A stretch of DNA of 36,776 bases. Source: a virus. This document shows positions 13,112 to 36,776 of this stretch, in pieces. The stretch lies in IMG/VR virus record IMGVR_UViG_3300036768_001872, positions 1-36,776 of that record; one strand, 5' to 3'. Under the pieces are notes generated by a model. That model saw nothing but the letters and a program-made list of their open reading frames with translations, had not been told where the DNA came from and did no database searches. Made by a program: the position numbers and the translations under genes. Position 1 is the stretch's first letter. Every line of letters starts with the position of its first letter.

Positions 13112-14427
13112 CCGAAATATTCTCCTGCAAAAGCAACAAATTCCATTGGGAGTGTTTGGTTAACCTCTTTGACTAGATTCAAGTATTCATAATCAATATC
13201 ATCTTTATTTCTGCCATCAATCAACGTGCTTTGTAGAAGCTGTATATACCCTTCTACTTCTTTTACTGCAATATTAACTTTTTCTAATTGCTTAAGTTTT
13301 TCAAGATCTGCTTCAAGTATGCCTTTTTTGATTAGTAAGTTTTTGAATATGTTACTATTTATCAAGTTGGTTAAAAATATCTTCTCTTCTTCACATATAT
13401 TGTCAGGATCAAGATTCAATGCTTTTCTATACCAAGCTATCAAATTTTCAATTGTTATTTTCATTCTTTTAGGAATTCTAAACATCTGAACGTCAGTTTT
13501 AGCGCTTTCTGGACATTCAGGGCATAATTTCGGTAAAGGAGAATAAGGAGGCAATTCTGTTGTTTTTCCGGCACAAGGTTGGCATTGATCTTTTAGAACT
13601 ACTTTATTATCATCTTCAACGACAATCTCATAGGAATGGTTGAAAGGTAAATTCTTTTGGAAGTTATCTCTTTCAAAATCCCAGTTGTTGTAAACTCTAA
13701 TACAAAACCATTTTTCGTCAATTGCAGATGGGAATTCAGGGATGGTGATTCGAACTTTAAATCTCCATTGTCGACCCCAAGGAAACCACACACCTGAGGG
13801 TTGTTGGCCGAACCAATTCGCACTCGGACTCAAATCTGCATTTTCTTCAACGCAATCTAAGTTGGGTAGTATACCATAAAGTTTACCGTAACCCGTCATA
13901 GAAATTCCTGGAGGAGGCGATCCGTCAATTATTTCAAAAAAGATCGGACGATCGCAGTCTTTCTTTTTTCCTGGTTGCGTTATTTTTTGTACTTTACATG
14001 ACGTTCCGTCGTAAAATTTTGGCGCAAATTTAACCCACGGGACAAACCCAACAAATGTGCCAGTGATGTAAGCATCAAATGAAGAAAAGAAATTGGTGAT
14101 ACACATAAAATACGTGTCACTAGATAAATCTTTTTGAAATTCTTGGTACTGCTCTTCTATAAGCACTGAACCTAAATCAATGATAGTCCCTGAACTTTCA
14201 TCATATGAGAAAATGCTAATTGTCATTTTGATTTGTCCAGGGATGCCTATAGGCACCAATTCAGTGATAAATCGAACCGTGTCTTGTCTTTCAACGTAGA
14301 AGATGAAAATATGTTTCTGGCTAGGGCCTATTGTAAAATGAGTTCTTGTGTTAGGATAGATGACATCGACTTCATCTACTTTATTTTGTGCTATGATATT
14401 AGAAATTACCTGAGCACAAGTTGCCAT
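13108..14427 (-). CDS. Baseplate/tail structural protein of unknown role (439 aa)
   Basis: A mostly beta-rich protein. At about residues 166-186, IDGSPPPGISMTGYGKLYGI resembles a putative-Ig (He_PIG-like) motif, in which GxPPG... precedes a GxLxGxLP turn. At about 276-306 there is a Cys-rich linker (KDQCQPC, then KLCPEC), followed by a mostly helical C-terminal part of about 130 residues. A GTG at 14436 would add three residues; the ATG at 14427 is chosen because it forms TGATG with the stop of the 792-aa gene. It sits between the repeat protein and the PAAR gene, so a baseplate or fibre-network role is likely. I do not recognise the family. Confidence 0.7.
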   Translation of the reverse strand: MATCAQVISNIIAQNKVDEVDVIYPNTRTHFTIGPSQKHIFIFYVERQDTVRFITELVPIGIPGQIKMTISIFSYDESSGTIIDLGSVLIEEQYQEFQKDLSSDTYFMCITNFFSSFDAYITGTFVGFVPWVKFAPKFYDGTSCKVQKITQPGKKKDCDRPIFFEIIDGSPPPGISMTGYGKLYGILPNLDCVEENADLSPSANWFGQQPSGVWFPWGRQWRFKVRITIPEFPSAIDEKWFCIRVYNNWDFERDNFQKNLPFNHSYEIVVEDDNKVVLKDQCQPCAGKTTELPPYSPLPKLCPECPESAKTDVQMFRIPKRMKITIENLIAWYRKALNLDPDNICEEEKIFLTNLINSNIFKNLLIKKGILEADLEKLKQLEKVNIAVKEVEGYIQLLQSTLIDGRNKDDIDYEYLNLVKEVNQTLPMEFVAFAGEYFG

Positions 14428-16805
14428 CAGAAGCACCTTGTTTTTATGTTATGCTGGTATGGATACAGTTCGATAGGTGTGGGTTCGAATTTTTCTGGAA
14501 TCGGATCTCCATCCTCATTCATGTATATGTATTCGTTATCAAGACAGCCCTCTTCAGTAAATTCAATTTGAACTTCTAAAGTCATTGACGCGCTGGCTGT
14601 TTGCCCTTCATGGCCGACCCAATCCGGTTCATAGAAATTGAGAGACATGCGAGAGCCGGTATGGGTACTATCGCTGGTTATACTAATCGTTGTGGAAAGA
14701 TTGAAATCAAGTCTTTCACCGCCATGTGTGATGAACAACCAAGGAGGGTAAACCATAAGATCAAAACTTAAACGTTCACCTGAGTAATTTTGATGAGCTA
14801 GCGTTCGGGTATTACGAAGAATTGCTCGAGCACTCTCTCCTGTGTATATGCGATCAACATAACAATTCTCATCGAGTACATCTGTCAATTCAATTATGAT
14901 ATTATGCCCGCTTGGAATGAAATAACCTTTACATAAGCGGATATTAAGTTTACTCTCAAAAGAGGTAAGAGAGAATTTCTCTCCGCTTGTGAAATTTATT
15001 TGTGGCTTGCCTTCATAATCTTCAGCAATATAAACCGTTCTATCGATGAAATCCGTGTATTCACCACCATGCGCCTGAAACTTAAATCTCGGGCGACAAC
15101 TTAAGTCGACATGAAATACAATATGATCCCCATCATGAATCTGGTCAGGATATTCAGCGAAATCCATTTCAATTCTGAAATTCTGTCCAAACCAAGGTCT
15201 AGGACCGCCGCAACAGCTATCAGTAGTTAAATCAAAGTATGTCTGGCTATCGATATCAACTTGAATATGAGTGTCATGCCAGAATACAACATATAAATCA
15301 TGATGCTGCATTGTTTTTAGAGTATCGGCTACTGCTTCTTCGCCGCCTCTGGCTCTTAGTAAGCCGATACCCTCACTTGGTCTGATGGTTAGGTCAATTG
15401 AATTTCTGGCACCATCATAATATCCCAGACTCAAAACAGTTTCAGTTCTTAAATCTAAGAGTAGATTTTCGCCAGCAGGAAACTTATAATTTTCAAGGAA
15501 ATCAATGGTATCGACTACTCCTGTTTCGCCGCCTATGTGATTGAATACTCCTATAGGCTTCGAAACTTGAATGCTAGCCTCTCCGTATTCACCTGTATAA
15601 AACAGAAGCGATAATCCAGGAGACGGGAAAGTCGTAATTGTTACTTCATTGACTTCACCGCCATAAGAGAACGTACCAATTTTAGTTGTGTAATTGATGT
15701 ATGGTAGTTCAAGTAATTCGCCAGAATAGCCATTGATAGAGAACTGAACAGGCGGACGGGGTTGTAAATCAGAAGCCGCCAGTTGACCATCATACGCAAG
15801 AGGTTCGAGTGCCTGACTGGTGCTTAGATAAGCATTTCCATATTCACCACCATAAGCAATAGATGGTAGGGCGTCTTTAGTTGATAACGCAACATCATTT
15901 AAGTTTTCGCCGCCATAACCATCTCCAGGCGAACCAGGATTTACAACATATGATATGTCAAACTGGGTTAATTCGCCGCCATAATACACATGGCCGAGCA
16001 GACGGTACGTATAAAGATCGAAATCTTCAGATACTTCACCTGCTCTAGCATTTACTGTTCCTAGGTCAATTGATGGGAATAAAGTAAGATTTGCATCAAG
16101 ATTTTCACCGACATAATAATCATAGCTGAAATGCGGCGTAACAAATAGGTCAAGTTCGGCATATTCACCTCCATAGTTATTAGATTCTAGAATATCAGGT
16201 AAGTTGATTTCGACGTCTGCGTTTGAATACTCACCGCTAACATAATCTTGAGGTATCATCGTCCAGTTATAAATTTCAACAGGTTGCAGAACCTCGCCTG
16301 TTGTGAACGAGATGATACCAAGGCTAAAAGACGGATGCGTGTCTAAATCAACAACATTTTCTTCGCCATCCTGAAAATCTGGCGAAACGAGTACACTCTT
16401 TAGTAGATCAGAGTAAGTATTCTCACCTGAATAGCTTCTAGGTTCTAGGAGTGCCGCAGGGGGTAAATAGAGCGGAACTTGTTCTAGAGCCGAACCATCA
16501 TGAGCGGAAGCGACAAAATAAGCAGTGATGACAACGTCGCTAGCACACGTTTGACCATCATAAGCTGTTACATCATTTAGAAGTTTATAAGTTTCTAGTA
16601 CAACAGAAAGTGTTTCACCATCTATCGCATCTATGGTATTACTTTCTGTGAGCTCAAAAGAAGCGTAAGAACCTTCCCTGATGTCAATAATACCAAAATC
16701 AGCACATTGCGAATCGGGGAAATTTACACTGACAAGTCCTTGAGGCGGTGAATACGGGCAATTGAAATCAATGGAATTATTGGCAGAAGGATTGTAGTTA
16801 CTCAC
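14427..16805 (-). CDS. YxGE-repeat structural protein (792 aa)
   Basis: About 25 degenerate copies of a unit of roughly 20-28 residues, with a Y/F-x-G-E core (YGGEYAELDLFVTP, YVGENLDANLTLFP, YYGGELTQFDISYV, YSGERLSFDLMVYP). Each core is followed by alternating hydrophobic positions typical of short beta-strands. This implies an elongated beta-solenoid or bead-like fibre. A Cys-containing non-repeat segment (DSCCGGPRPWFGQNF) interrupts the array near residues 527-541. The start is GTG at 16805, supported by AGGGG 8 bp upstream; no ATG gives the same N-terminus. It lies between the LamG protein and the 439-aa protein. I do not recognise the repeat as a named family; a virion fibre or decoration role is inferred. 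Confidence 0.75.
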   Translation of the reverse strand: MSNYNPSANNSIDFNCPYSPPQGLVSVNFPDSQCADFGIIDIREGSYASFELTESNTIDAIDGETLSVVLETYKLLNDVTAYDGQTCASDVVITAYFVASAHDGSALEQVPLYLPPAALLEPRSYSGENTYSDLLKSVLVSPDFQDGEENVVDLDTHPSFSLGIISFTTGEVLQPVEIYNWTMIPQDYVSGEYSNADVEINLPDILESNNYGGEYAELDLFVTPHFSYDYYVGENLDANLTLFPSIDLGTVNARAGEVSEDFDLYTYRLLGHVYYGGELTQFDISYVVNPGSPGDGYGGENLNDVALSTKDALPSIAYGGEYGNAYLSTSQALEPLAYDGQLAASDLQPRPPVQFSINGYSGELLELPYINYTTKIGTFSYGGEVNEVTITTFPSPGLSLLFYTGEYGEASIQVSKPIGVFNHIGGETGVVDTIDFLENYKFPAGENLLLDLRTETVLSLGYYDGARNSIDLTIRPSEGIGLLRARGGEEAVADTLKTMQHHDLYVVFWHDTHIQVDIDSQTYFDLTTDSCCGGPRPWFGQNFRIEMDFAEYPDQIHDGDHIVFHVDLSCRPRFKFQAHGGEYTDFIDRTVYIAEDYEGKPQINFTSGEKFSLTSFESKLNIRLCKGYFIPSGHNIIIELTDVLDENCYVDRIYTGESARAILRNTRTLAHQNYSGERLSFDLMVYPPWLFITHGGERLDFNLSTTISITSDSTHTGSRMSLNFYEPDWVGHEGQTASASMTLEVQIEFTEEGCLDNEYIYMNEDGDPIPEKFEPTPIELYPYQHNIKTRCF

Positions 16806-23805: not shown

Positions 23806-24422
23806 GCAACGATGTCAGTATAAAAAGTTTCATAGCAAAACTCGGAACAGGACTAGCCAAACCTTGTCGTTATCGCGTCGAGTTTAGTTTACCTGCAGGT
23901 TTTAATGCCGATCCTTCTTTGCCAGGCGTAAATACTGATAGCGCTGCTTCAAATATCAGAACTGTAGAAACGAATTTGAATCAAAATGGTTTAGTGAATG
24001 TGATGTGTCATACATGTAGTTTCCCTCAGCGCTCGTTATTAACTTATGAACATAAACAATTATCGGCGCCTTATAGAGTTCCCTATTCGCAAACTTATGA
24101 TCCTGTTACTTTTAGTTTTTATGCCGATTCAGATTATATTGTGAGGGAGTATTTTGATATCTGGCAAAATGCAGTCGTGAATATTGGAAGCAATACGATA
24201 AATTACTATAATGAGTTTACGAGCGACGTTAACATCTATGCTATAAATGATGCAGGTGAAGATACTTACTACGTTACTCTTTATGAAGCGTACCCAATTA
24301 ACATTGGCATAGTTGATCTTAGTTATAGTAATGTGAACGCGACACAAACAGTCACGGTAACTCTAAGCTACAAGTACTGGGCTTCAAGTTATAATGATAC
24401 CGCTGTAAACAGAACTCAATGA
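23802..24422 (+). CDS. Tail-tube-fold protein (gp19/gp54-like)
   Basis: A 206-aa protein with the tube-protein layout: an N-terminal FIAKLGTGLAKPCRYRVEFS, then VMCHTCSFPQRSL, YRVPYSQTYDPVTFSFYADS, YIVREYFDIWQNAVV, INYYNEFTSDVNIYAINDA, LYEAYPINIGIVDLSYS and VTVTLSYKYWAS. T4 gp19 (163 aa) forms the tail tube and the related gp54 (320 aa) starts it. The gene lies apart from any sheath gene and near gp48, so a gp54-like tube initiator or a second tube protein are both possible. A TTG-start extension at 23787 is rejected in favour of the ATG at 23802, which forms ATGA with the upstream stop. Confidence 0.75.
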   Translation: MSNDVSIKSFIAKLGTGLAKPCRYRVEFSLPAGFNADPSLPGVNTDSAASNIRTVETNLNQNGLVNVMCHTCSFPQRSLLTYEHKQLSAPYRVPYSQTYDPVTFSFYADSDYIVREYFDIWQNAVVNIGSNTINYYNEFTSDVNIYAINDAGEDTYYVTLYEAYPINIGIVDLSYSNVNATQTVTVTLSYKYWASSYNDTAVNRTQ

Positions 24423-24898
24423 CGTCCAAGCCGTATGAAAATCCATGGCTGTTCAATGGAGAGCCATTTCTGGATTGTAGTAAATATGCAGGTTTTGTTT
24501 ATTTGCTGATAGACAAGGTGACTGGTAAACGATATATTGGCAAGAAATTTTTCTGGTGTAAGCGTAAAGCGCCAAACAAGAAACGTCGGGTAACTGTTGA
24601 GAGTAATTGGCGAGAGTACTATAGCTCATGCGATGAAATCAAGAAGTTAGTCAAAGAACATGGTAAACAGAGATTCGAAAGACATATCCTGAGTTTACAT
24701 GAACTTGAACGAGACGTGAATTATATGGAAATCAAACTTCAGTATATGCTAGGAGTTTTAGAAAAGACAGATGAAGAAGGAAATATGCTCTATTACAATG
24801 GCAACATTTCAGGGAAACATCATGCTCATCTAGTCAAAGGAATCGAAGAAAGAACCAAAGCTATAGATCCTGAAGTTTTGAAATCCTTAGTGATTTGA
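24419..24898 (+). CDS. GIY-YIG endonuclease-like protein in the late operon
   Basis: A 159-aa protein. GFVYLLIDKVTGKRYIGKKF (residues 25-44) gives the GIY-YIG core as FVY...YIG. Arg65 in SNWREYYSS and Glu104 in NYMEIKLQ fit the catalytic Arg and metal-binding Glu of the fold. Many such proteins are homing endonucleases (T4 Seg type), but this one is joined to the tube-fold gene by ATGA and has no obvious separate DNA-binding domain, so a fixed function in phage DNA processing is possible. Its last 38 bp overlap the 3' end of the convergent kinase gene on the opposite strand. Confidence 0.82.
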   Translation: MTSKPYENPWLFNGEPFLDCSKYAGFVYLLIDKVTGKRYIGKKFFWCKRKAPNKKRRVTVESNWREYYSSCDEIKKLVKEHGKQRFERHILSLHELERDVNYMEIKLQYMLGVLEKTDEEGNMLYYNGNISGKHHAHLVKGIEERTKAIDPEVLKSLVI

Positions 24899-25715: not shown

Positions 25716-25759
25716 ACAGCAAGCTGTAATGAGCTAACATACAGCTTTTGGCTGTATGT
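25716..25759 (-). other. tnpB 3'-end hairpins (right-end / omega-RNA candidate)
   Basis: A perfect 9-bp stem (25737-25745 ACATACAGC with 25751-25759 GCTGTATGT; 5-nt loop) covers the last codons of tnpB. A second small inverted repeat, ACAGC-AA-GCTGT, lies at 25716-25727 and shares the ACAGC/GCTGT core. A hairpin at the tnpB 3' end is what IS200/IS605 right ends and their TnpB guide RNAs show. The exact element end and any guide sequence are not defined here. Confidence 0.5.
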
Positions 25760-26939
25760 CTTCCGGATTCACAGACCCAGCTAACGCCAGCGCCTCCTCC
25801 GGTTTTTGTTTAATGTCCGACTCAGCTCCTGAACCAGACAATACTTTTAAACCTTGCTGAAGTATATTCTTAGCAGCATTGACGTCTCGGTCATGTTCAA
25901 TTCCACAAGACGGACAAGTCCATTTCCTGACGTCGAGGACTAATTCTTCGAGCACATGTCCACAGCAAGAACAAGTCTTGCTTGACGGAAACCAACGGTC
26001 AATCAAAATAATCTGCCTGTTGTGCCACGCTGCTTTATACTTCAGCATCGAAACTAAACTACCCCATGAAACATCAGATATTGCTTGAGCCAGTCTGCGG
26101 TTTTTGACCATATTCTTAACCCCAAGGTCCTCTAGTACGATAACTTGGTTCTCGTCTATCAGCTTAGAAGACACCCGATGGAGGTAGTTGTTTCTTTGGT
26201 TGACTACTTTTTCGTGTTGAATTGCTAATCTGATTCTCGCTTTACTACGAGTCTTAGACTCCTTCTTTTTCTTAGAAAGCTGTCGATTAAGATACTTTAA
26301 CCTCTTGAGTTGCTTCTTGAGAAATCTTCCATTTTCAATTTCTTTGCCATTCGAATCAACCAATAAGGATTTAATACCTAGATCAACACCAATGATTTCG
26401 CCTGTGGATTTCTTTTGTTTGATCTCAAATTCACCTTGTATGGACGCGAAATATTTTCCAGAAGCATTTCTTGAGATAGTAATTGAATTGATTTTAACTG
26501 GAACTCCAGTGTATGATCCCCTGAATTTAAAGGGTTTTTTGAACTTCGGGATCTTCAGCGTCTTGGATTCCCAATCTATGGTAAAGTATTGTGGAACCCT
26601 GAAAGATTGTCTTGCATCACGTTTAGTTTTGAACTTAGGAAGTTTCGATATTTTACGAAAGAATCGCTTGTACGCATCATCTAGGTCTTTCAATGTGGCT
26701 ATAATTGACTGTGAGTTAACTTCCTTCAGCCATGCAAACGAAGGATCCTTTTTCATTTGTGTGACAAGAGCACAACAATCATAAAAATTTAATGTCTTGC
26801 CGTTTTCTTGGTATTCTTTCTCGCGAATCTCTAAAAACTTATTATAGATGAATCTTCGCACGCCAAAGTGTTTAGCCAAGAGTTCTTTATCAGACTCTCT
26901 TGGATAGATTCGAACTTTGACCGACTTCTGAACTATCAT
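25734..26939 (-). CDS. tnpB: TnpB (IS200/IS605-type RNA-guided nuclease)
   Basis: A 401-aa TnpB with a complete RuvC-type active site: Asp186 in IIGVDLGIKSL, Glu270 in VIVLEDLGVKNM, Asp352 in HDRDVNAAKNIL. A zinc finger is formed by Cys323/Cys326 and Cys342/Cys345 (TCSCCG, TCPSCG). The N-terminal KVRIYP and FIYNKFLEI elements are typical. No TnpA is present in the window, so it could move only with help or is now resident. TnpB proteins cut DNA next to a target motif using an RNA from the element's right end. It sits between the membrane-protein and lipoprotein genes in the same orientation, with no clear promoter of its own, so it is probably transcribed from upstream. Confidence 0.93.
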   Translation of the reverse strand: MIVQKSVKVRIYPRESDKELLAKHFGVRRFIYNKFLEIREKEYQENGKTLNFYDCCALVTQMKKDPSFAWLKEVNSQSIIATLKDLDDAYKRFFRKISKLPKFKTKRDARQSFRVPQYFTIDWESKTLKIPKFKKPFKFRGSYTGVPVKINSITISRNASGKYFASIQGEFEIKQKKSTGEIIGVDLGIKSLLVDSNGKEIENGRFLKKQLKRLKYLNRQLSKKKKESKTRSKARIRLAIQHEKVVNQRNNYLHRVSSKLIDENQVIVLEDLGVKNMVKNRRLAQAISDVSWGSLVSMLKYKAAWHNRQIILIDRWFPSSKTCSCCGHVLEELVLDVRKWTCPSCGIEHDRDVNAAKNILQQGLKVLSGSGAESDIKQKPEEALALAGSVNPEDIQPKAVC

Positions 26940-28607: not shown

Positions 28608-29105
28608 TTAACCCTCAGAATACATTCTATTGATTTCACCTAACAAATTATGCATCCAAGACATGGAACGTTTGATGATCTCTTCTTCTTCGAGAATACG
28701 GCGCTCACACATCTCAGCTTTCAATACACCTCTGCGTTTCTCCTCTTCCCATTGCTCTTTGTTTTCAATGGCGCGTTCAAGCTGCTGAATGATTTTCTTA
28801 TAGATGCGCGTGAGTTCTTGTTGTGCTTCTCGAAAAGAGATTCTTGAAGCGCCCTCAGGTTTTTCAACTAGAACTCTCTTTCCATTTTTGAACTCACACT
28901 TCTTGAACACGTCGCAATCAATGATCTCAACGTTACCGACCATGCCGACTTTATAAGAACGCTCAGCTTTTTGTACTTCAAGGCCGAACACTTTCCGCAC
29001 CCAATCTTCTGCGGCTTGATAGTCAGGAGCATGAACTTTGAAGATGTACGGCTGCTTCGTTGATGGATCCTTCAAGAAAACTTGAAACGTTTTTGGTTTG
29101 TTCAT
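28608..29105 (-). CDS. Hypothetical early protein with coiled-coil C-terminus (165 aa)
   Basis: The N-terminal 45 residues (TFQVFLKDPSTKQPYIFKVH APDYQAAEDWVRKVFG) look like a small alpha/beta unit of the kind found in other phage early proteins. Residues about 85-160 are a long, highly charged helix (QQELTRIYKKIIQQLERAIE NKEQWEEEKRRG, ERRILEEEEIIKR). It is the first gene after promoter P1, with AGGAGA before the ATG. Its leader and first codons (ATGAACAAA) are nearly identical to those of the paralogue gene at 32332-32925, although the proteins are not alike. The function is unknown. Confidence 0.7.
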   Translation of the reverse strand: MNKPKTFQVFLKDPSTKQPYIFKVHAPDYQAAEDWVRKVFGLEVQKAERSYKVGMVGNVEIIDCDVFKKCEFKNGKRVLVEKPEGASRISFREAQQELTRIYKKIIQQLERAIENKEQWEEEKRRGVLKAEMCERRILEEEEIIKRSMSWMHNLLGEINRMYSEG

Positions 29106-29242: not shown

Positions 29243-30343
29243 TCAATCGAGTAAAATCTTATCCCCGAACGGCACTTCTCGGCTCTCAGTCAGCACCCAA
29301 AGAGTAGGATAAAGAGGGATGGATTCTGGATAATCCCCGTACCCATCTGTGAAGTACAAAAGCACATCTGGTACCATACCTTGTTTTTCAACCCAGGCGA
29401 AAGCAGGTCTGAAATCCGTTCCGCCTCCTCCAATTGGTTCAAGGACTACAGGGCTGTACTCATCGAAATAATCAACTTTCGCTACGTTGGCGTCACAGTA
29501 AACGACGTAAACGTTTTCTATAGAAATTTCATCTTTGATTGCATTTATTTCTGAAGCGAAACTCCTGAGATGATCGTTCGTGATAGAACCCGACGTATCG
29601 ATTACCAGCACGCAATTTTGCATCTTCGGGGTTTTCGTTTTGCCTGGTAGGTAGAGAGAACTGTGAATGAATCTACGGTTTGGTCTCAGCCAGTTCGTCT
29701 CGGGAGATGGTACAAAATTCGCAAAGTAACGACGTAGTTGCTCTTCCCAAGGAATCTTTGGAGTCACTAGATCATCAATCATTCTAGCGATACTAGCAGG
29801 CATCTTTCCTGCCCTTTGAGCAGCTTGCTTGGCTTGTACCAGCTTTCTTTTCATTCTGGCCGCATGTTCTGGATCACTGGGCCCTTCTTGTAAATCCTCC
29901 ATTGATAATTTCAGGCTTTGCCAGTCATTTTTTTCATGGAGGATTTTGTAGATTTCTTCTGCACTCTTGTTTTCAAATTGACGATCGTAAAGCACTCCCT
30001 TGGGAAGCATGAAATTGGAGTGTATCAGCAGCGGATTTATCGCATAGTCACAGGCGATATTCCATAATACTGGATTTCTTTCTTTCAGCCTCGAACAGTG
30101 GAGTAATGCCATATGAAGTATTTCGTGGCATAAGACTCCTTGAATTTCTTCGTCGCGCAAACTTTTGACAAAATTTGAATTGTATAAAATTCTTTTCCCG
30201 TCCGTTGCCATCGTACCGACGAGTTCTGAATTTTCTTCGATGGGAGTCTGAAGGAGCAAACAACCAAAGAACGGCTGGCTCAAGACTAGTTGAAGCTTTG
30301 CTTTCGTGATTTTTTTCTCTGCGTCTGCTTTCACTTTGCTCAT
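29243..30343 (-). CDS. VWA-domain protein with metallopeptidase-like N-terminus (DUF2201 type)
   Basis: A 366-aa protein with two parts. The N-terminal domain has a zinc-peptidase motif HEILH (73-77) in EEIQGVLCHEILHMALLH and WNIACDYAIN (about 94-103), whose Asp is a likely third ligand. The C-terminal von Willebrand A domain has a MIDAS: DTSGS (249-253), GGGGTDF (305-311) and TDGYGD (332-337). Such proteins pair with MoxR-type AAA+ ATPases, which remodel partners under control of the VWA domain. Here the ATPase gene lies 5.4 kb upstream, beyond eight paralogues. The gene has its own promoter, P2, and GAGG 8 bp before the ATG. Confidence 0.9.
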   Translation of the reverse strand: MSKVKADAEKKITKAKLQLVLSQPFFGCLLLQTPIEENSELVGTMATDGKRILYNSNFVKSLRDEEIQGVLCHEILHMALLHCSRLKERNPVLWNIACDYAINPLLIHSNFMLPKGVLYDRQFENKSAEEIYKILHEKNDWQSLKLSMEDLQEGPSDPEHAARMKRKLVQAKQAAQRAGKMPASIARMIDDLVTPKIPWEEQLRRYFANFVPSPETNWLRPNRRFIHSSLYLPGKTKTPKMQNCVLVIDTSGSITNDHLRSFASEINAIKDEISIENVYVVYCDANVAKVDYFDEYSPVVLEPIGGGGTDFRPAFAWVEKQGMVPDVLLYFTDGYGDYPESIPLYPTLWVLTESREVPFGDKILLD

Positions 30344-30373: not shown

Positions 30374-30402
30374 ATTATAATGTAACTCCTAGAAGAAGTC
30401 AA
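30374..30402 (-). promoter_or_regulatory. Early promoter P2
   Basis: Minus-strand TTGACT (30402-30397), 17-bp spacer, TATAAT (30379-30374), 31 bp upstream of the VWA gene. It shares the TATAATATAAT extension with P1 and P4 but lacks the long upstream repeat. Confidence 0.88.
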
Positions 30403-30433: not shown

Positions 30434-31015
30434 TCAGTCATCTAGGAACCTCAACTGATTCAGAGTGACCAAGATGCGAGAAGGCGTGAGCTGTTTCATC
30501 GGAGTCACATGATCATAATTTCCCTTAAGAAAAGGAATGAAACAGGTGTTACGTGCAATGAAATCTTCAAAGATGGGATATCTATTCATTTTCTCATGAA
30601 CGTAGTCGAGTACCCTGTTCGCGTTTTTCTCTAAGTCCCCATAGAAACGCAAGATGAGTTTCAGTTGCTTAAAGAAAGACAACTTCTTGAGTTTATCATA
30701 AGGATATACCGTCACGTGGGAACAAAAGAAGTGAAAACCAGTCTCTGCCGCTACAGCGAAAAAATCATTGTCATCCTTGGGGTTGTAGTGAAGAATGAAA
30801 TTGGAAACGTAACGCTTTCTGTAGGTACCAGGCGGCAACAAAGTTTCGATGAACTCTCCCGGATATGAAGGCGAATACGGCTCGTACAGAACAGTCAGGA
30901 ATTCTTTTTCGTTCTCTTGGATCAAATTCACAACCTTCTTCTGCCGTTTTTCAACGATCTTTTTGTAAATGAGGGAGCTCAATGAAAGTTTGAGGCTGTT
31001 GTACTCTTGCGACAT
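30434..31015 (-). CDS. Array paralogue A1 (unknown function)
   Basis: A 193-aa protein of paralogue family A. Family marks are an N-terminal helix ending NLIQENEKEFLTVLYEPY, a beta-rich centre, YPYDKLKKLSFFKQLK, a helical stretch then YPIFEDFIARNTCF, and a C-terminal QLTPSRILVTLNQL. The frame extends to 31081 but that would cross promoter P3; GGTGA 5 bp before the ATG at 31015 and alignment with A2 (MSQEYN with MAIGYN) fix this start. No enzyme motif, signal peptide or membrane segment is seen. A1 is closest to A2. Confidence 0.8.
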   Translation of the reverse strand: MSQEYNSLKLSLSSLIYKKIVEKRQKKVVNLIQENEKEFLTVLYEPYSPSYPGEFIETLLPPGTYRKRYVSNFILHYNPKDDNDFFAVAAETGFHFFCSHVTVYPYDKLKKLSFFKQLKLILRFYGDLEKNANRVLDYVHEKMNRYPIFEDFIARNTCFIPFLKGNYDHVTPMKQLTPSRILVTLNQLRFLDD

Positions 31016-31048
31016 CATGATCACCGTTATTTCATCATTGTCGATCAT

Positions 31049-31077
31049 ATTATAATACATCCTCCACAAGAAGTCAA
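31049..31077 (-). promoter_or_regulatory. Early promoter P3
   Basis: Minus-strand TTGACT (31077-31072), 17-bp spacer, TATAAT (31054-31049), with the upstream 38-bp repeat. It drives A1. Its -10 region lies inside the in-frame extension of A1, which rules out the upstream starts. Confidence 0.88.
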
Positions 31078-31109
31078 GCACTTTTTGAAAATTTTTTGAA
31101 CTTTTTTGA
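31072..31109 (-). repeat. 38-bp promoter-upstream repeat, copy 2
   Basis: 36/38 identical to 29160-29197, with changes near the -35 end only (TTGACT instead of TTGACA, and one base in the adjacent tract). It precedes P3. Confidence 0.9.
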
Positions 31110-31139
31110 CAGAAGGCATCTCTGTTCCCATCAGACGCA

Positions 31140-31727
31140 TCAGAACAAAGAATTCAATTCATCCAGGATGGCCAAGATTTCAGGTGGAGTTCTTTGTTCT
31201 TTTGGCTGCACATGTTCGGGAGGCTGATCGAGAAAAGAAGCGAAGCAGATATTATGTGCAATGAAATCCTTGAAATCAGGGAATTCTTTCTCGTTTGCTC
31301 TTATATGAGCTAACAATTCACCCGCAAGTTTTTCTGCCTTTCTCATCACCTTTTTGTATATGTCGATGGACAATTTCAAATCTTTAAAGAAAGACAGCTT
31401 CTTGAGTTTGGCGTAAGGATAGTACAAGAAGTGTGTACAAAGCAAATGATACTCAGTCTCTAGAGTGACGGTGAGGATATTGTTACTTACTGGATCATGG
31501 CACAAATGGAAGTATGAAATACAGCGATTTTTGCAATCATCAGGTGGCAATAAAGCTTTGATGAACTCTTCAGGAAATGAGATCGGATATGGCTCGTACA
31601 GAACAGTCAGGAATTCTTTTTCATTCTCTCGGATCAAGTTCATAACTTTTTCTTGGTATTTTTCATCTACATCCCTATAGATGTGAGAGTACAGTGCAGT
31701 TTTGAACATATTATAACCGATTGCCAT
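31140..31727 (-). CDS. Array paralogue A2 (unknown function)
   Basis: A 195-aa family A protein, clearly homologous to A1 along its length: NLIRENEKEFLTVLYEPY is almost identical, as is YPYAKLKKLSFFKDLKLS, and FPDFKDFIAHNICF corresponds to YPIFEDFIARNTCF. The C-terminus is QRTPPEILAILDELNSL. The ATG at 31727 has GGTGA 5-6 bp upstream and lies 5 bp after the A3 stop; a GTG at 31736 overlapping that stop is less likely. It probably shares an mRNA with A3 and B1, started at P4. Confidence 0.8.
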   Translation of the reverse strand: MAIGYNMFKTALYSHIYRDVDEKYQEKVMNLIRENEKEFLTVLYEPYPISFPEEFIKALLPPDDCKNRCISYFHLCHDPVSNNILTVTLETEYHLLCTHFLYYPYAKLKKLSFFKDLKLSIDIYKKVMRKAEKLAGELLAHIRANEKEFPDFKDFIAHNICFASFLDQPPEHVQPKEQRTPPEILAILDELNSLF

Positions 31728-31732
31728 GAGAA

Positions 31733-32335
31733 TCACCCATTACACAAAATTTCCAGTTGACTCAAAAAGGTGATGATTTCTGGAGGGGTCAACTGCTCAC
31801 GAGCAACAGGAAGCTTGACCTTATAAAACTCTTTGGTGTAGTTCACGAAGCAGATATTGTGTCTCAAGAAATTCCGAAATACTGGAAATTTTCGTTGACA
31901 GACATCAATATAATCAAAGAGTTTCACTCTCGCGTCAGATAAAATATAATACGAAAGAAGTTCATGCCTCAATTCTTCAAAGAATGAAAGTTTTTTCAGT
32001 TTATGATAAGGATACTTAAGAGAAAATCCTTGGAAAGGATGCGGTGTTTGAATAGGAATATATAGTTGTACTTCACGTTCAGAATTCTCATCTAAGCGAA
32101 AGTAAACTAGACTGAATCGAATGTCGAAATGTTTCACGTAAATCACTTCATCCATGAACTCATCTGAAAATTTAGGCAGGACATAAGGTTCATAGAATTT
32201 ATCCAGAAATTCGGCAGCATTTTGTTCGATCAATGACATCGCCCGGTCATTGTGATCATTTTGTCCGATACTCAGGCGGCGGTCTAAAACATTCTTCAAA
32301 ATTGCGTAATATTCTTCCGATTTCAATGGAGTCAT
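31733..32335 (-). CDS. Array paralogue A3 (unknown function)
   Basis: A 200-aa, more divergent family A member. It keeps SLIEQNAAEFLDKFYEPY, the hallmark KYPYHKLKKLSFFEELRHEL, FPVFRNFLRHNICFVNY, and EQLTPPEIITFLSQLE. The central 55 residues are unlike A1 and A2, so the ends are constrained while the middle varies. The ATG overlaps the B1 stop (ATGA), which shows that families A and B are translated from the same message. Confidence 0.8.
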   Translation of the reverse strand: MTPLKSEEYYAILKNVLDRRLSIGQNDHNDRAMSLIEQNAAEFLDKFYEPYVLPKFSDEFMDEVIYVKHFDIRFSLVYFRLDENSEREVQLYIPIQTPHPFQGFSLKYPYHKLKKLSFFEELRHELLSYYILSDARVKLFDYIDVCQRKFPVFRNFLRHNICFVNYTKEFYKVKLPVAREQLTPPEIITFLSQLEILCNG

Positions 32336-32925
32336 GTGTTACACACCTTGCAGATAAATTGTGCCTTTCGAACGTAGTCCCCTAGATGTTCTGGTAGTCG
32401 CTTGAGCTTCTTGGGGTCTTTGTATGGGCCTAACTTAAATCTGAAGCGGAACCGCCTCTTCGTGAACTCATGCAGTTCAGGATATGTTCTCAGCATCTCA
32501 GACAAAGTGTACTTCTGGCTTTCTTCTTTAAGAAATCTTCTCAATTCAAGAGATGTTTGCTCAAAATAGCTGATACTCTCGTAAAACGACTTGAACTCTT
32601 CAAATTTCGAAAAATACTGGAGCTGATCGTCTGTGATTGTGAACACGCAAAAGGGTGCACTGAAATTTTGAGGTTTATAAACAACTGCTACAATCCAACC
32701 GGGGTCGCTCAAACGAATATGAAAAGTGAGATGTTCTTGCCAGGTGGGCTGTATCTGACTATTCTCCGCGAGAAAGTTCTCGTCTGGTCCTCTGAAGACA
32801 CACTCAAAGAACTCATTTTCGTTCTCTCTAATGAGCTCTCTGAGCTTACTCTTGAAATAGTTAGTTACTCTTTCGTTCTCGAATTCTAGAAAACTCGTTA
32901 GTACATGAAGATCACCTTTGTTCAT
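32332..32925 (-). CDS. Array paralogue B1 (unknown function)
   Basis: A 197-aa family B protein: ELIRENENEFFECVF near residue 35, LQYFSKFEEFKSFYESISYF in the middle, then LSEMLRTYPELHEFTKRRFR and the C-terminal PYKDPKKLKRLPEHLGDYVR KAQF. These four landmarks align in order with those of family A (IxENExEF, KLxxFSFF, YPxFxxF, PPEI), so A and B look like branches of one superfamily. The ATG at 32925 has AGGAGA 6 bp upstream; it is the first gene after promoter P4. Confidence 0.8.
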   Translation of the reverse strand: MNKGDLHVLTSFLEFENERVTNYFKSKLRELIRENENEFFECVFRGPDENFLAENSQIQPTWQEHLTFHIRLSDPGWIVAVVYKPQNFSAPFCVFTITDDQLQYFSKFEEFKSFYESISYFEQTSLELRRFLKEESQKYTLSEMLRTYPELHEFTKRRFRFRFKLGPYKDPKKLKRLPEHLGDYVRKAQFICKVCNT

Positions 32926-32957
32926 GATATATCTCCTTTTTTTCACTTCACGATTAT

Positions 32958-32986
32958 ATTATAATGCAACCTTCATGAAATGTCAA
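32958..32986 (-). promoter_or_regulatory. Early promoter P4, consensus sigma70 type
   Basis: Minus-strand TTGACA (32986-32981), 17-bp spacer, TATAAT (32963-32958). The spacer, the TATAATATAATCGT extension, the leader, the ribosome site and the first three codons of the gene are nearly identical to P1. It drives B1, A3 and A2. Confidence 0.9.
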
Positions 32987-33018
32987 GCAATTTTTAAAAA
33001 TTTTTTGAACTTTTTTGA
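32981..33018 (-). repeat. 38-bp promoter-upstream repeat, copy 3
   Basis: 37/38 identical to 29160-29197. Together with the downstream similarity it makes a cassette of about 95 bp shared by P4 and P1. Confidence 0.9.
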
Positions 33019-33046
33019 GGAGAAGGGCGTTCTTATCCTTCAATGA

Positions 33047-33661
33047 TCAATCAAACAATGTCTTCTCCATGAACTGTACCTTTCGGACGTAGTCACCCAG
33101 ATGTTCTGGTAGTTGTTTGAGCTTTTCTGGACTTTGGAAGGGCGGAGTTTTGAACTTGAAGCGATTCTTAGTATACTCGTACAGCTCAGGGTATGTCCTG
33201 AGCAATTCTAATAAGGTGTAGCTCGGATGCTCACGGTCAAGAAATCTTTTCAGATCTAATAAGCTCTGATTGAAATAGTCTACAGCCTCACATTGCGACT
33301 TCAACTCGTCAAACTTTGGGAAATTTTGAATGCGTTGATAACGAACTATGACTGAATGAAGCGGAATGAAAAAGTCTTTTGGTGGGTAATCGAGGGATAT
33401 GACGCCTGGCGGCATCCCAGGTTTGTAAGTTATATACAACAAGAAATTCTTTCTCGCGGGAGGTACGAAATCATAACTGATTTCTTGAATCAGTGGAAGC
33501 AATTTGCTGAAATGTTCTTTTTGTTCTCCGAGTACAGCATCGAAGAACGCTTCCTCATTTTCATTGATAAATGATATCAGTTTAATTTTCAATGTATTCA
33601 GTACTCTTGAATTGCGCTGCTCTAAGAAATTTTTCAGGTCAAGCAAGTCGTTTAGCTGCAT
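33047..33661 (-). CDS. Array paralogue B2 (unknown function)
   Basis: A 204-aa family B protein: FINENEEAFFDAVLGEQKEH FSKLLPLIQEISY, then RIQNFPKFDELKSQCEAVDYF, LLELLRTYPELYEYTKNRF and LKQLPEHLGDYVRKVQFMEK. It has a slightly longer beta-rich centre with PPGVISLDYPPKDF. AGGAGA precedes the ATG. It is the only gene between P5 and P4, so it can be expressed separately from its neighbours. No known domain recognised. Confidence 0.8.
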   Translation of the reverse strand: MQLNDLLDLKNFLEQRNSRVLNTLKIKLISFINENEEAFFDAVLGEQKEHFSKLLPLIQEISYDFVPPARKNFLLYITYKPGMPPGVISLDYPPKDFFIPLHSVIVRYQRIQNFPKFDELKSQCEAVDYFNQSLLDLKRFLDREHPSYTLLELLRTYPELYEYTKNRFKFKTPPFQSPEKLKQLPEHLGDYVRKVQFMEKTLFD

Positions 33662-33690
33662 GATGATCTCCTTTCACTTTTCTTGATTGT

Positions 33691-33719
33691 ATTATAACGC
33701 AGTTCTTAAGAAAAGTCAA
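33691..33719 (-). promoter_or_regulatory. Early promoter P5
   Basis: Minus-strand TTGACT (33719-33714), 17-bp spacer, TATAAT (33696-33691), only 7 bp after the B3 stop. It has no 38-bp upstream repeat because the upstream sequence is coding. It drives B2. Confidence 0.88.
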
Positions 33720-33725
33720 GCAATT

Positions 33726-34325
33726 TTACATTGTCTTCATGATGAACTGGACTTTGCGGATGTAGTCACCTAGATGTTTTGGTAATTCTTTGTGTTTCTT
33801 CGGATCTTTGTATGGTTTCAACTTGAATCTGACTCCAAAGTAATCTTTCACGTACGCGCACAACTCAGGATACATTTTCAAGAGGACTGAAAGAGTATGC
33901 ACTTGATGCTTATCATAAATGAAATTTCTGAGCTTCACTTTGTTGATTTCGAGATAGTCAATGAGCTCGTAGTATGATCTCAAATCATCGAACTTCGAAA
34001 AATCTTGAATCTTATCCTGCCTTACTATGATTGTTTTGAGCGGCAACCAGAAATTTTTGAAATCATAGGAGATGAATGTATGTGAACTTCTAGCTGCTTC
34101 GAACTCGAAAAGTATATCAACACCCTTCGTTATGAAAAGTTTGTAATAACTCAACTCTTCAAACACAGGAAGTAATTTTTTGTAAGCATCACTTTGTTCG
34201 CCGAAGAGACAGTTGAAGAATTCTTCCTCATTATCCCTAATAATCCATTTGATTTTGTTCTTTAGATGTTCAACTACTTTTTTGTTAAGAAATTCAATGC
34301 AGTTGTCTAAGTCATCTAATCTCAT
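33726..34325 (-). CDS. Array paralogue B3 (unknown function)
   Basis: A 199-aa family B protein: WIIRDNEEEFFNCLFGEQSD AYKKLLPVFEELSYYK matches B2 closely, followed by KIQDFSKFDDLRSYYELIDY, VLLKMYPELCAYVKDYF, PYKDPKKHKELPKHLGDYIR and KVQFIMKTM. The ribosome site is weak (GGAA, 9 bp upstream), and a 35-bp gap without a promoter separates it from the C1 gene, so it is probably read from the upstream operon. Function unknown. Confidence 0.8.
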   Translation of the reverse strand: MRLDDLDNCIEFLNKKVVEHLKNKIKWIIRDNEEEFFNCLFGEQSDAYKKLLPVFEELSYYKLFITKGVDILFEFEAARSSHTFISYDFKNFWLPLKTIIVRQDKIQDFSKFDDLRSYYELIDYLEINKVKLRNFIYDKHQVHTLSVLLKMYPELCAYVKDYFGVRFKLKPYKDPKKHKELPKHLGDYIRKVQFIMKTM

Positions 34326-34360
34326 TTCAAAATTCCATCATCTAGGGTTTCAATGTAACG

Positions 34361-35053
34361 TCACAGATCTGCTCTCTTGTTTACTATTGTCAAAGCACCG
34401 AAGTCCTTGTATATTTCTGCTCCCCAACTCGCAATATTCAAAGTCACAATATTGGGATCTGCTAAAACTTCCTTACCATGTTTTAGGTACAAATCATAGA
34501 GTTCATGTAAATCATCATATGCCATTCCTTTCAAATTCAAGACAATACTTCTTGGTAACAATTGCACATAAAACCTCTGCGCTTGTTGCAAGTCTTTAAG
34601 AAATCTATCTACTTTGCGTTTGATGGAATAGTTCCATACTTTCTTTTCAATGACAGGTTCTTCACCGCATAGATAATAATTTCTTGTCTTCTCATCATAA
34701 CGGTATTGTTGTCCTTGCTTCAGAGGATACTCCTTCCCTTCAAGATAGTATTGTTGATGTCTGCAAACTATTTTCTTCCCTAGAATGGACTCCAAATAAC
34801 CTTTGTATGATGGGTACAAAGAATCAAGGCGTACAATAAATCCTTCCTTGCCAATAGAATGTATAGTTGTTATTACTACATGCAGCAAAAAAGCATGGTG
34901 GACGTAAATCACATACCCATCTTCAATTTGTTTTATCCGAAACCCCTTTAGACTCTTAGGCCCTTCAGGGAAATCAGGGAATAGTCGTTTTCCGTTTATT
35001 CGGGTGAGATTGCTCAGAAAATGCTCTCTATCCACAGTTTCATTTACACTCAT
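34361..35053 (-). CDS. Array paralogue C1 (unknown function)
   Basis: A 230-aa protein and tandem partner of C2, with close similarity throughout: GKRLFPDFPEGPKSLKGF, ESILGKKIVCRHQQYYLEGK, YRYDEKTRNYYLCGEEPVIE, KRKVDRFLKDLQQAQRFY and the nearly invariant EVLADPNIVTLNIASW followed by GALTIVNKR. The first 130 residues look beta-rich and the last 100 helical. The ATG overlaps the C2 stop (ATGA). It does not obviously match families A or B, and no named family is recognised. Confidence 0.8.
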   Translation of the reverse strand: MSVNETVDREHFLSNLTRINGKRLFPDFPEGPKSLKGFRIKQIEDGYVIYVHHAFLLHVVITTIHSIGKEGFIVRLDSLYPSYKGYLESILGKKIVCRHQQYYLEGKEYPLKQGQQYRYDEKTRNYYLCGEEPVIEKKVWNYSIKRKVDRFLKDLQQAQRFYVQLLPRSIVLNLKGMAYDDLHELYDLYLKHGKEVLADPNIVTLNIASWGAEIYKDFGALTIVNKRADL

Positions 35054-35730
35054 GGATCTACTCTCCTTTCAACTATAGTCAAAGCACCTAAATCCCTGTA
35101 TACTTCCAGTTTCCATCTATCAATATTCAAAGTCACAATATTGGGATCTGCTAAGGCTTCTTTACCGCGTTTCGAATACAAATCGTAAAGTTTTTTCAAA
35201 TCGTCATATACTATCCCACTCAAGATGACGTTATCCGGGAGTAACTGTCTGTAAAAATTTTGAGCTTGTTGTAGATCTCTTAAAAATCTATCCACTTTAC
35301 GCCTGACAGGATAATCCCATATAGCTTCTTTAACGATAGGCTCACTACCATACAAATAATAATTCCTTAATTTTTCGTCATAACGATACTTCTGCTCTCG
35401 CACCACTATGGGATATTCTTTTTCTTCTAAATAGTATCTGTAGTTCTTATAAATTATCTTCTTTCCCATCACGGATTCCAAACAAGCCGCATATTCACGA
35501 CTTATTGAATCGATGCTTATGATGAATCCTTCGCTAGTGATGGAAGAGATAGTTGCCACTGCCACTTCTGTGCGCGGAAAAGGAAGATAACCATAAATCT
35601 CATATAACTCACCTTTTTTACTCACCCAAAAATTTTTCAGACTCTTGGGCCCCTCAGGAAAATCAGGAAACAATTTTTTGCCCTTCAGGGGCTTATTCAC
35701 GAGATCGTCTAGAAAACTCTTCCTGTCCAT
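35050..35730 (-). CDS. Array paralogue C2 (unknown function)
   Basis: A 226-aa paralogue of C1, sharing KKLFPDFPEGPKSLKNF, ESVMGKKIIYKNYRYYLEEK, YRYDEKLRNYYLYGSEPIV, RRKVDRFLRDLQQAQNFY and EALADPNIVTLNIDRW. The most variable part is residues about 30-75. AGGA lies 6 bp before the ATG at 35730; the ATG at 35736 directly abuts that AGGA and is less likely. It follows the MoxR gene after a 77-bp gap that holds a 12-bp hairpin but no visible promoter, so it is probably cotranscribed with the ATPase. Confidence 0.8.
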   Translation of the reverse strand: MDRKSFLDDLVNKPLKGKKLFPDFPEGPKSLKNFWVSKKGELYEIYGYLPFPRTEVAVATISSITSEGFIISIDSISREYAACLESVMGKKIIYKNYRYYLEEKEYPIVVREQKYRYDEKLRNYYLYGSEPIVKEAIWDYPVRRKVDRFLRDLQQAQNFYRQLLPDNVILSGIVYDDLKKLYDLYSKRGKEALADPNIVTLNIDRWKLEVYRDLGALTIVERRVDP

Positions 35731-35758
35731 ATCCATTCCTAGTTGAAATGTTTTTAGT

Positions 35759-35807: not shown

Positions 35808-36776
35808 TCAGAACAGCACCGCGGCATTTTGTTTCGACCACTTCGTGAACTCAGCCGTGAGAACGATTTCTGCGTTCTTCTTTGAGATATCCTTGAAGAA
35901 CATGGTCTGGAACTCGACAGGCAGTTTCTCGATGAACTTGAAGACTTTAGAGAAGTCTTTTTTCTCAGTGCGATTCACCAGCATCGTCGTGATTGCATAC
36001 AGTAATGCTAACTCAGTCGGTACTTCAGTTTTCTCAGGATTATCCCTGACGTCCTCATAAGAAGGAAGATTCTTATATACGTTCACATAAGCATCGAACT
36101 CTACTGCTGCCGCTTCTCCTACCGTAGAACAGGCCAGTGAGAAAATCATATCGTGAGTGGCATGTTCAAGCAAACGAGACAAGAAAGACCAGCTCCTCGG
36201 AGTCGCAAAACTAGCAACATCCCTCTTCGTGGGATCGAAGGTGTTCAAAAGATCTGGTCTGAATTTTAAGAAGGCGATGATCATTTCATTTATGTCATTG
36301 GCATAAGCCCAATCATACCAATCTTCTGCGGCACATTCGACGTCGATATGCGCCATGCGATTTTTCAGAGCAGAAGAAAGGGGATTGGCTAAGGCACCAT
36401 CCGTGAGTCGATTACCTGCGGCTATGATAGTCCAACCATCAGGTAACTTGTAGTCACCGATCCTCCTGTTCAAGATTAATTGATAAGCTGCGGCCTGAAC
36501 AGTCTTATCAGCCTGATTGATTTCATCTAAGAACAAAATGCCTTCACCTTCAGTCGGCAAGAAATTAGGCGGACACCAACTCGTCTGATCATTTTCGACC
36601 CGAGGTAATCCTCTCAAATCTACGGCATCAATCTGCGATAATCTAAGATCAATGACAGGAAGTCCGAGTGAGAAAACAATATCAGATTTCCCAATCCCCG
36701 GACTTCCCCATAACATCACAGGAACTTTTGCTTTAACGAAGGTGGGGAGAACTTTCTTTACTTCACTAGTACGCAT
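35808..36776 (-). CDS. MoxR-type AAA+ ATPase
   Basis: A 322-aa ATPase whose ATG is the last codon of the window. Walker A is GSPGIGKS (24-31), Walker B ILFLDEIN (80-87), sensor 1 IIAAGNR (117-123), and the arginine-finger region is ALKNRMAHI (136-144). The order and the DLRLSQIDAVDLRGLP insert are typical of MoxR/AAA_5 proteins of phages. MoxR ATPases act as chaperones with VWA-domain partners; such a partner is encoded at 29243-30343. The C-terminal 120 residues are mostly helical. Promoter and ribosome site lie outside the window, so the start is taken from the frame and motif distance only. Confidence 0.92.
   Translation of the reverse strand: MRTSEVKKVLPTFVKAKVPVMLWGSPGIGKSDIVFSLGLPVIDLRLSQIDAVDLRGLPRVENDQTSWCPPNFLPTEGEGILFLDEINQADKTVQAAAYQLILNRRIGDYKLPDGWTIIAAGNRLTDGALANPLSSALKNRMAHIDVECAAEDWYDWAYANDINEMIIAFLKFRPDLLNTFDPTKRDVASFATPRSWSFLSRLLEHATHDMIFSLACSTVGEAAAVEFDAYVNVYKNLPSYEDVRDNPEKTEVPTELALLYAITTMLVNRTEKKDFSKVFKFIEKLPVEFQTMFFKDISKKNAEIVLTAEFTKWSKQNAAVLF

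What the first reader, a model, noticed from the sequence alone, without database searches (positions are those of the whole stretch)
30434..35730. Array of eight tandem paralogues of unknown function between a MoxR ATPase and its VWA partner
Six proteins of about 200 aa (A1-A3, B1-B3) share four landmarks in the same order: IxENExEF near residue 30-35, a KLxxFSFFxxL or FSKFDELKS segment near 110, YPxFxxF near 150, and a C-terminal PPEI or LPEHLGDYVRK. The centres vary strongly. Two further proteins (C1, C2) form a second paralogue pair. Repeated duplication with conserved ends and variable middles, plus early-type promoters, is what an arms-race gene family looks like (anti-defence or host-takeover factors). 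I recognise no named family.
Basis: partly seen in the sequence, partly recalled or inferred. Interest (0 to 1): 0.82.

Follow-up and report, generated by a model that had tools for sequence, protein, structure and literature searches.

The report
Expanded third-component genes, phage MoxR–VWA module
In this uncultured T4-like phage, the gap between an AAA+ unfoldase and its protease/VWA partner, which in many other phages holds a single Nmad5-type gene, has filled with at least six duplicated relatives of apparently the same fold, several with their own early-type promoter, which may let one protein-remodelling machine act on several targets.

Summary
The array is real: six ~200-aa paralogues (A1-A3, B1-B3) plus an unrelated pair (C1, C2) between MoxR and a DUF2201 metallopeptidase-VWA gene. 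A and B are homologous (B3-A1 BLAST 1e-4; hhalign 2e-6), and a third subfamily, D, occurs in two related contigs. No database names them. The best lead is the slot: in other phages it often holds one Nmad5-type (PF18757-like) or DUF3150 gene, and one contig has a tandem Nmad5 pair. AlphaFold models of a B protein and a slot Nmad5 show the same order of helices and strands, and five of 42 BFVD hits for B are among the 22 best Nmad5 hits (none of ranks 23-50). So A/B/D most likely are diverged, multiplied versions of the slot's third component, though Nmad5 membership is not met by sequence. Five near-perfect sigma-70 promoter cassettes confirm 'early-type promoters' and correct the A1 start. 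Orthologues show purifying selection (dN/dS 0.06-0.17), so a present arms race is not shown; duplication, gene loss and one-gene exchange are. The closest cultured phages lack the module, which weighs against virion assembly. Most likely: early accessory adaptors or clients of the MoxR-VWA protease (inferred).

The parts
35808..36776 (-). MoxR-type AAA+ ATPase (322 aa), first gene of the module; reaches the contig end
   Evidence: phrog_1297 4e-102, Pfam AAA_5 7e-7; Walker A GSPGIGKS and ILFLDE visible in the sequence; same start as L005 MoxR, 69% identical
35050..35736 (-). C2, first member of the C pair (228 aa)
   Evidence: 55% identical to C1; single C gene in L005; unrelated to A/B/D
34361..35053 (-). 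C1, second member of the C pair (230 aa), 4-nt overlap with C2
   Evidence: the first 27 nt of contig L004 encode the same C1 C-terminus
33726..34325 (-). B3 paralogue (199 aa)
   Evidence: 97% aa identity and dS 0.10 to L004 B3 against about 0.65-1.0 for most neighbours, so recently exchanged
33691..33719 (-). sigma-70 promoter of B2, TTGACT-17-TATAAT
   Evidence: divergence from L004 sets in within this promoter
33047..33661 (-). B2 paralogue (204 aa)
32958..32986 (-). sigma-70 promoter of B1, TTGACA-17-TATAAT (12/12)
32332..32946 (-). B1 paralogue (204 aa as called; likely start ATG 32925)
   Evidence: Shine-Dalgarno next to the inner ATG; two L004 co-orthologues
31733..32335 (-). A3 paralogue (200 aa), 4-nt overlap with B1
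31140..31736 (-). A2 paralogue (198 aa), 4-nt overlap with A3
31049..31077 (-). sigma-70 promoter of A1, TTGACT-17-TATAAT
30434..31018 (-). A1 paralogue, corrected start (194 aa)
   Evidence: 47% identical to A2
30374..30402 (-). sigma-70 promoter of the VWA gene, TTGACT-17-TATAAT
29243..30343 (-). DUF2201 zinc-metallopeptidase-like + VWA protein (366 aa), module partner
   Evidence: PF13203 5.7e-50, PF09967 4.6e-23; HEILH and DTSGS motifs visible in the sequence; 92% and 65% identical in L004 and L005
29137..29165 (-). fifth promoter cassette (12/12), in front of the next gene, 28608-29105
   Evidence: 93% identical over 82 nt to the B1 cassette

Best explanation
A1-A3 and B1-B3 (and D in relatives) are diverged, tandemly multiplied versions of the small 'third component' that phage MoxR-VWA modules carry, most likely sharing the fold of Nmad5-type slot proteins. 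Shown: they are one family; they lie between MoxR and a metallopeptidase-VWA protein; copy number varies; several copies carry their own near-consensus sigma-70 promoter cassette. Supported but not proven: common fold, hence probably common descent, with slot Nmad5. Inferred: the MoxR ring and the metallopeptidase-VWA protein form an unfoldase/protease (or maturation) machine, and the paralogues are its adaptors or dedicated clients, each with a different variable surface, made early in infection and aimed at host or other non-virion targets. Duplication and gene-by-gene exchange, with breakpoints in the shared promoter cassettes, would build such a repertoire.
For: Slot: of 35 loci with an Nmad5-type gene, 31 are MoxR>Nmad5>VWA, 2 more carry two Nmad5 calls in the slot (one, L122, a tandem pair), 1 has it right after VWA; 17 others carry DUF3150 near the pair (Pfam names). 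Fold: the B model (pLDDT 87, pTM 0.82) and the slot-Nmad5 model (81.6, 0.65) share the order helices, three strands, short helix, 32-38-residue helix, 7-residue helix ending at [YW]P, next helix. BFVD: 5 of 42 B hits are among the 22 best Nmad5 hits, 0 among ranks 23-50; three of them have the highest TM-scores in the B list apart from one tie (0.38-0.44). One family. Expansion: window 3A+3B+2C; L004 4B+3A+1D with C in front; L005 B-A-D-C. Promoters. Accessory module: five closest cultured relatives lack MoxR, VWA and A/B/D, positive control for VWA.
Against: Sequence alone does not link A/B/D to Nmad5: no Pfam or PHROG hit, hhalign P 0.14-0.66, best single case P 0.008 for L093, and a rank test in which Nmad5, DUF3150 and an unnamed helical family all scored above background, so it does not single out Nmad5. 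No individual Foldseek hit of B is significant (best E 0.22). The Nmad5 VRMT start and C-terminal FD...LTAKL block are absent. No physical link to MoxR or VWA is tested. The slot statistic is biased, because the Nmad5 query came from slot members; in KpCHEMY26 Nmad5 lies about 10 kb from the pair and in Dhillonvirus near the capsid gene (PMC11846954).
Confidence: 0.5

Rival explanations
1. Free-standing anti-defence or host-takeover inhibitors: each paralogue binds a host protein by itself and MoxR-VWA are mere neighbours.
For: Strong early-type promoters, copy-number change and one-gene exchange, no conserved catalytic residues, small size, not found in the closest cultured phages.
Against: Present in all three known loci inside the MoxR-VWA interval, a slot that has its own resident gene in other phages; orthologues under purifying selection without a hot centre; PADLOC has no match (it is a defence library, so weak evidence).
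Confidence: 0.25
2. Nucleotide-modification role: like Nmad5 as named, the proteins take part in altering phage DNA bases, and MoxR-VWA matures or loads a cofactor into that enzyme, as MoxR-VWA pairs do for chelatases and dehydrogenases (established knowledge).
For: Fold resemblance to Nmad5; Nmad5 is described as a DNA-modification gene, and a point mutation in it lets Dhillonvirus escape Tmn immunity (PMC11846954).
Against: Only F39 and P172 are invariant over 17 members: no candidate catalytic residue. No base-modification enzyme is recognised in this 36.8-kb fragment. Nmad5 is itself named by association; six enzyme copies would be odd.
Confidence: 0.1
3. Virion-assembly chaperone: MoxR-VWA and the paralogues fold or process tail or head parts, as proposed for jumbo phages.
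For: Published proposal for group 2.2 jumbo phages with the same metallopeptidase-VWA fusion (PMC7824862); tail and baseplate genes in the same record.
Against: Near-consensus host-type promoters, repeated in the array and rare in the structural part; the cultured phages that share the baseplate gp6 (42-45%) and the LamG protein (38-39%) lack the whole module (control 127).
Confidence: 0.15

Closest known systems
Nmad5 (Pfam PF18757, PHROG 1965)
   Same: Same genomic slot between MoxR and VWA in 31-33 of 35 sampled loci; same predicted order of secondary structure; split helix at a T-[VIL]-x-x-[LF]-[LF]-x-x-[WY]-P motif (B and most Nmad5); shared BFVD neighbours.
   Different: No significant sequence match; lacks the VRMT start and the C-terminal FD...LTAKL block; 3-8 copies instead of 1-2; three subfamilies.
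MoxR-vWA ternary systems with VMAP, iSTAND or FtsH third components (eLife 2020, PMC7159879)
   Same: A MoxR AAA+ protein and a vWA protein with a distinct third component, the VMAP ones rapidly diverging variants of a helical fold; there linked to biological conflict.
   Different: Bacterial, with effector domains and a different third protein; here a phage module with a metallopeptidase-fused VWA and many small third proteins without effector domains.
Phage MoxR / metallopeptidase-vWA chaperone pair of group 2.2 jumbo phages (PMC7824862)
   Same: Same two partner proteins, a metallopeptidase fused to VWA next to MoxR.
   Different: No paralogue array described there; proposed for virion assembly, which the early-type promoters and absence from close relatives do not favour here.
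PeSL mobile regulatory cassettes of T4-like phages (known here through PMC4503421)
   Same: Repeated early promoter cassettes in front of accessory genes, with exchange at their edges.
   Different: The stem-loop half is not supported here (fold z-scores -0.69 to +0.85).

Membership tests
Nmad5 (PF18757) | Profile match above the curated cut-off (27 bits) | tested here: not met
   No Nmad5 hit for any of the six at E up to 10; none in the L004 or L005 records
Nmad5 (PF18757) | Fold: helices, three strands, long helix, split helix at [WY]P | tested here: met
   Secondary-structure order of the two AlphaFold models and shared BFVD hits; no direct superposition was possible, so this is a match of topology, not of coordinates
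Nmad5 (PF18757) | N-terminal VRMT and C-terminal FD...LTAKL blocks of slot Nmad5 | tested here: not met
   Alignments A8 and A13
DUF3150 (PF11348) | Profile similarity | tested here: not met
   No Pfam hit; hhalign P 0.03-0.75; one DUF3150 ORF (L043) scores E 0.012 with the B profile
MoxR-vWA module | MoxR AAA+ ATPase with Walker A/B and a VWA partner with metal-binding DxSxS | tested here: met
   motifs GSPGIGKS, ILFLDE, HEILH and DTSGS in the sequence
MoxR-vWA VMAP ternary conflict system | Third protein with the VMAP helical region and effector domains | not tested
   No VMAP profile was run; no effector domain found by Pfam
PeSL cassette | Early-type promoter | tested here: met
PeSL cassette | Stem-loop terminator joined to the promoter | tested here: not met
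   no segment folds better than shuffles
One family for A, B and D | Significant profile similarity between subfamilies | tested here: met

The most novel reading that the evidence does not exclude
A phage-encoded, early-expressed AAA+ unfoldase/metalloprotease with an interchangeable set of duplicated specificity adaptors: each Nmad5-fold paralogue directs the MoxR/VWA-protease at a different host (for example defence) protein, and promoter cassettes allow adaptor genes to be gained, lost and swapped one at a time.
Probability: 0.2. Interest if true: 0.85.

Novelty: new variant of a known kind. Interest (0 to 1): 0.55.

Why it matters
Phage MoxR-VWA pairs are common (over 700 cultured records match each gene) and their job is unproven. 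The finding ties them to a third component, of Nmad5 or DUF3150 type, and gives a natural case in which that component alone has been multiplied. If the paralogues are adaptors, this is a ready set for asking what the machine acts on. It also gives Nmad5, so far named by association with DNA modification and seen as a mutation site that changes Tmn sensing, a second and possibly more telling context.

Tried and rejected
Sequence profiles against Pfam, PHROGs, NCBIfam, PADLOC and PDB sequences: nothing significant for A, B, C or (NCBIfam, PADLOC, PDB) D. Cultured phages by tblastn: no match for B or C. hhalign with secondary structure added gave no gain; an earlier global run was discarded. The profile rank test was not specific. 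PDB comparison (pdb_via) of both models: Z below 5, only generic coiled coils and the like. Stem-loops beside the promoters: not better than shuffles. Positive selection: not found. Homology of C to A/B/D: not supported. The paper that defined Nmad5 and the PeSL papers are not in the library. L093 as a sequence bridge between Nmad5 and A/B/D: only P 0.008, not relied on.
Full report
What is there. The window is a 36,776-base virus record of a T4-like myovirus fragment: baseplate, tail-tube-cap, tail-lysozyme, tail-tube gp19 and RNA-ligase genes. At one end, all on the minus strand, stand MoxR, C2, C1, B3, B2, B1, A3, A2, A1 and a DUF2201 metallopeptidase-VWA gene. Gene joints are tight (4-nt overlaps C2/C1, B1/A3, A3/A2; other gaps 35-100 nt).

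Family relations. B members are 38-42% identical, A members 33-47%, the C pair 55%; the best A-B pair reaches 1e-4. Two related IMG/VR contigs, L004 (3300035183_001189) and L005 (3300036768_000624), carry the same interval. They add a third subfamily, D. Profile comparison joins A, B and D (P 2.4e-6, 1.4e-8, 1.5e-13) and separates C. In the tree A, B and D are each supported, with an L005 member inside each, so the three subfamilies predate the three phages; the younger splits (A1/A2/A3, B1/B2/B3, and the L004 pair of B1) came by later duplication (some branches are long and their place is unsure).

Copy number. Window: 3A, 3B, 2C, no D. L004: 4B, 3A, 1D, with the end of a C1 gene at its very first bases. 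L005: one each of B, A, D and C. The window has therefore probably lost D. B3 stands out: dS 0.10 between window and L004 against about 0.65-1.0 for most neighbouring genes, and near-identity stops inside the B2 promoter. This is best read as a one-gene exchange with an edge in the promoter.

Selection. Whole-gene dN/dS of window/L004 orthologues is 0.06-0.17, similar to VWA 0.06 and RNA ligase 0.10, without a central peak except in quarters where dS is too small or saturated. These are two-sequence estimates. They argue against present positive selection; they do not exclude diversification just after duplication.

Promoters. Five sites with 11-12 of 12 matches to the sigma-70 consensus lie in front of B2, B1, A1, VWA and the next gene, against 0.09 expected; the other 28 kb hold two such matches, and the cassette around them was seen only in the array and its edge. 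The site and its flanks form a repeated cassette of about 80 nt, 61-93% identical between four copies; six sites are in L004 and none in the L005 array. Host-type consensus promoters are what T4-like phages use early (established knowledge); timing itself is not measured here. A stem-loop, as in PeSL cassettes, was not supported.

What other phages have in this slot. With the VWA profile 80 viral loci were fetched. In most, MoxR and VWA are neighbours, often with one extra gene. Pfam names two kinds of extra gene: Nmad5 (PF18757, E to 1.6e-8) and DUF3150 (PF11348, E to 1.7e-9). After a further fetch with Nmad5, 31 of 35 loci with an Nmad5-type gene read MoxR>Nmad5>VWA, two more have two Nmad5 calls in the slot and one has it just after VWA. 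In L122 the two are a tandem pair of 260 and 223 aa. In L118 they overlap and may be one broken gene. The sample is biased, since the query was built from slot members, and some loci are the same contig fetched twice.

Fold. The L005 B protein gave a confident model (pLDDT 87.1, pTM 0.82), the slot Nmad5 of L087 a fair one (81.6, 0.65). Elements in B: H3-34, H36-61, E72-77, E83-88, E99-102, H104-107, H113-144, H148-154, H156-166, H182-196. In Nmad5: H8-25, H33-44, H47-58, E75-87, E96-111, E119-121, short turn, H127-164, H168-174, H176-181, then further helices. In both a 7-residue helix follows the long one after three residues and ends at a proline, P156 in B and P176 in Nmad5, within S/T-[VIL]-x-x-L/F-L-x-x-[YW]-P. 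Foldseek against BFVD gave no significant hit for B (best E 0.22), but five of its 42 hits are among the 22 best Nmad5 hits, three of them at probability 1.00 to Nmad5, and none among Nmad5 ranks 23-50. The hypergeometric P is 5e-16 with a library of 351,242 entries (that size is from memory) and still 6e-5 if only 2,000 independent entries are assumed. I take a common fold as likely (about 0.7), common descent as somewhat less certain. Sequence comparison did not show it.

Function. The literature held describes MoxR-vWA pairs as chaperone and co-chaperone, proposes virion assembly for the metallopeptidase-fused kind in jumbo phages (PMC7824862), and describes ternary MoxR-vWA conflict systems with a diverging third protein in bacteria (PMC7159879). 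Here the nearest cultured relatives by baseplate gp6 and the LamG protein (Acidovorax ACP17, Xanthomonas X1, Stenotrophomonas Mendera and BUCT608, Variovorax V45v66) gave no match to MoxR, VWA or A/B/D, while the VWA profile finds its target in four control phages (no such control was run for MoxR or exists for A/B/D). So the module looks accessory, and virions of relatives are made without it. With only two invariant residues over 17 proteins an enzyme is unlikely. Adaptors or dedicated clients of MoxR-VWA, made early, fit best; the targets are unknown, and no binding is shown.

Novelty. Nmad5, DUF3150 and MoxR-VWA are known. Of the four held papers that mention Nmad5, the one that studies it does not mention MoxR; the others were not read, and the paper that defined Nmad5 was not available. 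The array is a new variant: a multiplied third component with three subfamilies, no recognisable sequence family and promoter cassettes of its own.

Noticed in passing
window 29243-30343: PHROG 1314 labels this family 'HNH endonuclease', but Pfam shows a DUF2201 metallopeptidase plus VWA domain; the label recurs in many phage annotations.
   Followed up: yes
L122:3497-4961: Tandem pair of Nmad5-type genes between MoxR and VWA, an independent duplication in the same slot.
   Followed up: partly
L063:4183-9875: Six short ORFs around MoxR, VWA and DUF3150 show weak mutual similarity (best E 9e-5 in a 7-protein set) and may be shrunken DUF3150-like paralogues, i.e. a second array.
   Followed up: partly
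L040:9257-10153 and 40 similar loci: Unnamed family of about 275 aa directly after VWA in 41 loci, perhaps another third component.
   Followed up: partly
window 25734-26939: IS605 OrfB/TnpB-like gene (PF07282 7e-27) inside the phage; no TnpA seen among the ORFs examined.
   Followed up: no
window 24419-24898: SegE-type GIY-YIG endonuclease (PF19835 1.5e-41) beside the tail-tube gene.
   Followed up: no
L006:7037-7802 (Bacillus phage G): Bacillus phage G also has nine genes between MoxR and VWA; two small neighbours look like paralogues of each other by eye, not recognisably related to A/B/D.
   Followed up: no
window 14427-16805: 792-aa protein in the structural region without any PHROG or Pfam match.
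   Followed up: no
Klebsiella phage KpCHEMY26 (L094, L143): Has MoxR and VWA as neighbours and a strong Nmad5 (E 1e-55) about 10 kb away, so the two also occur together but apart.
   Followed up: partly
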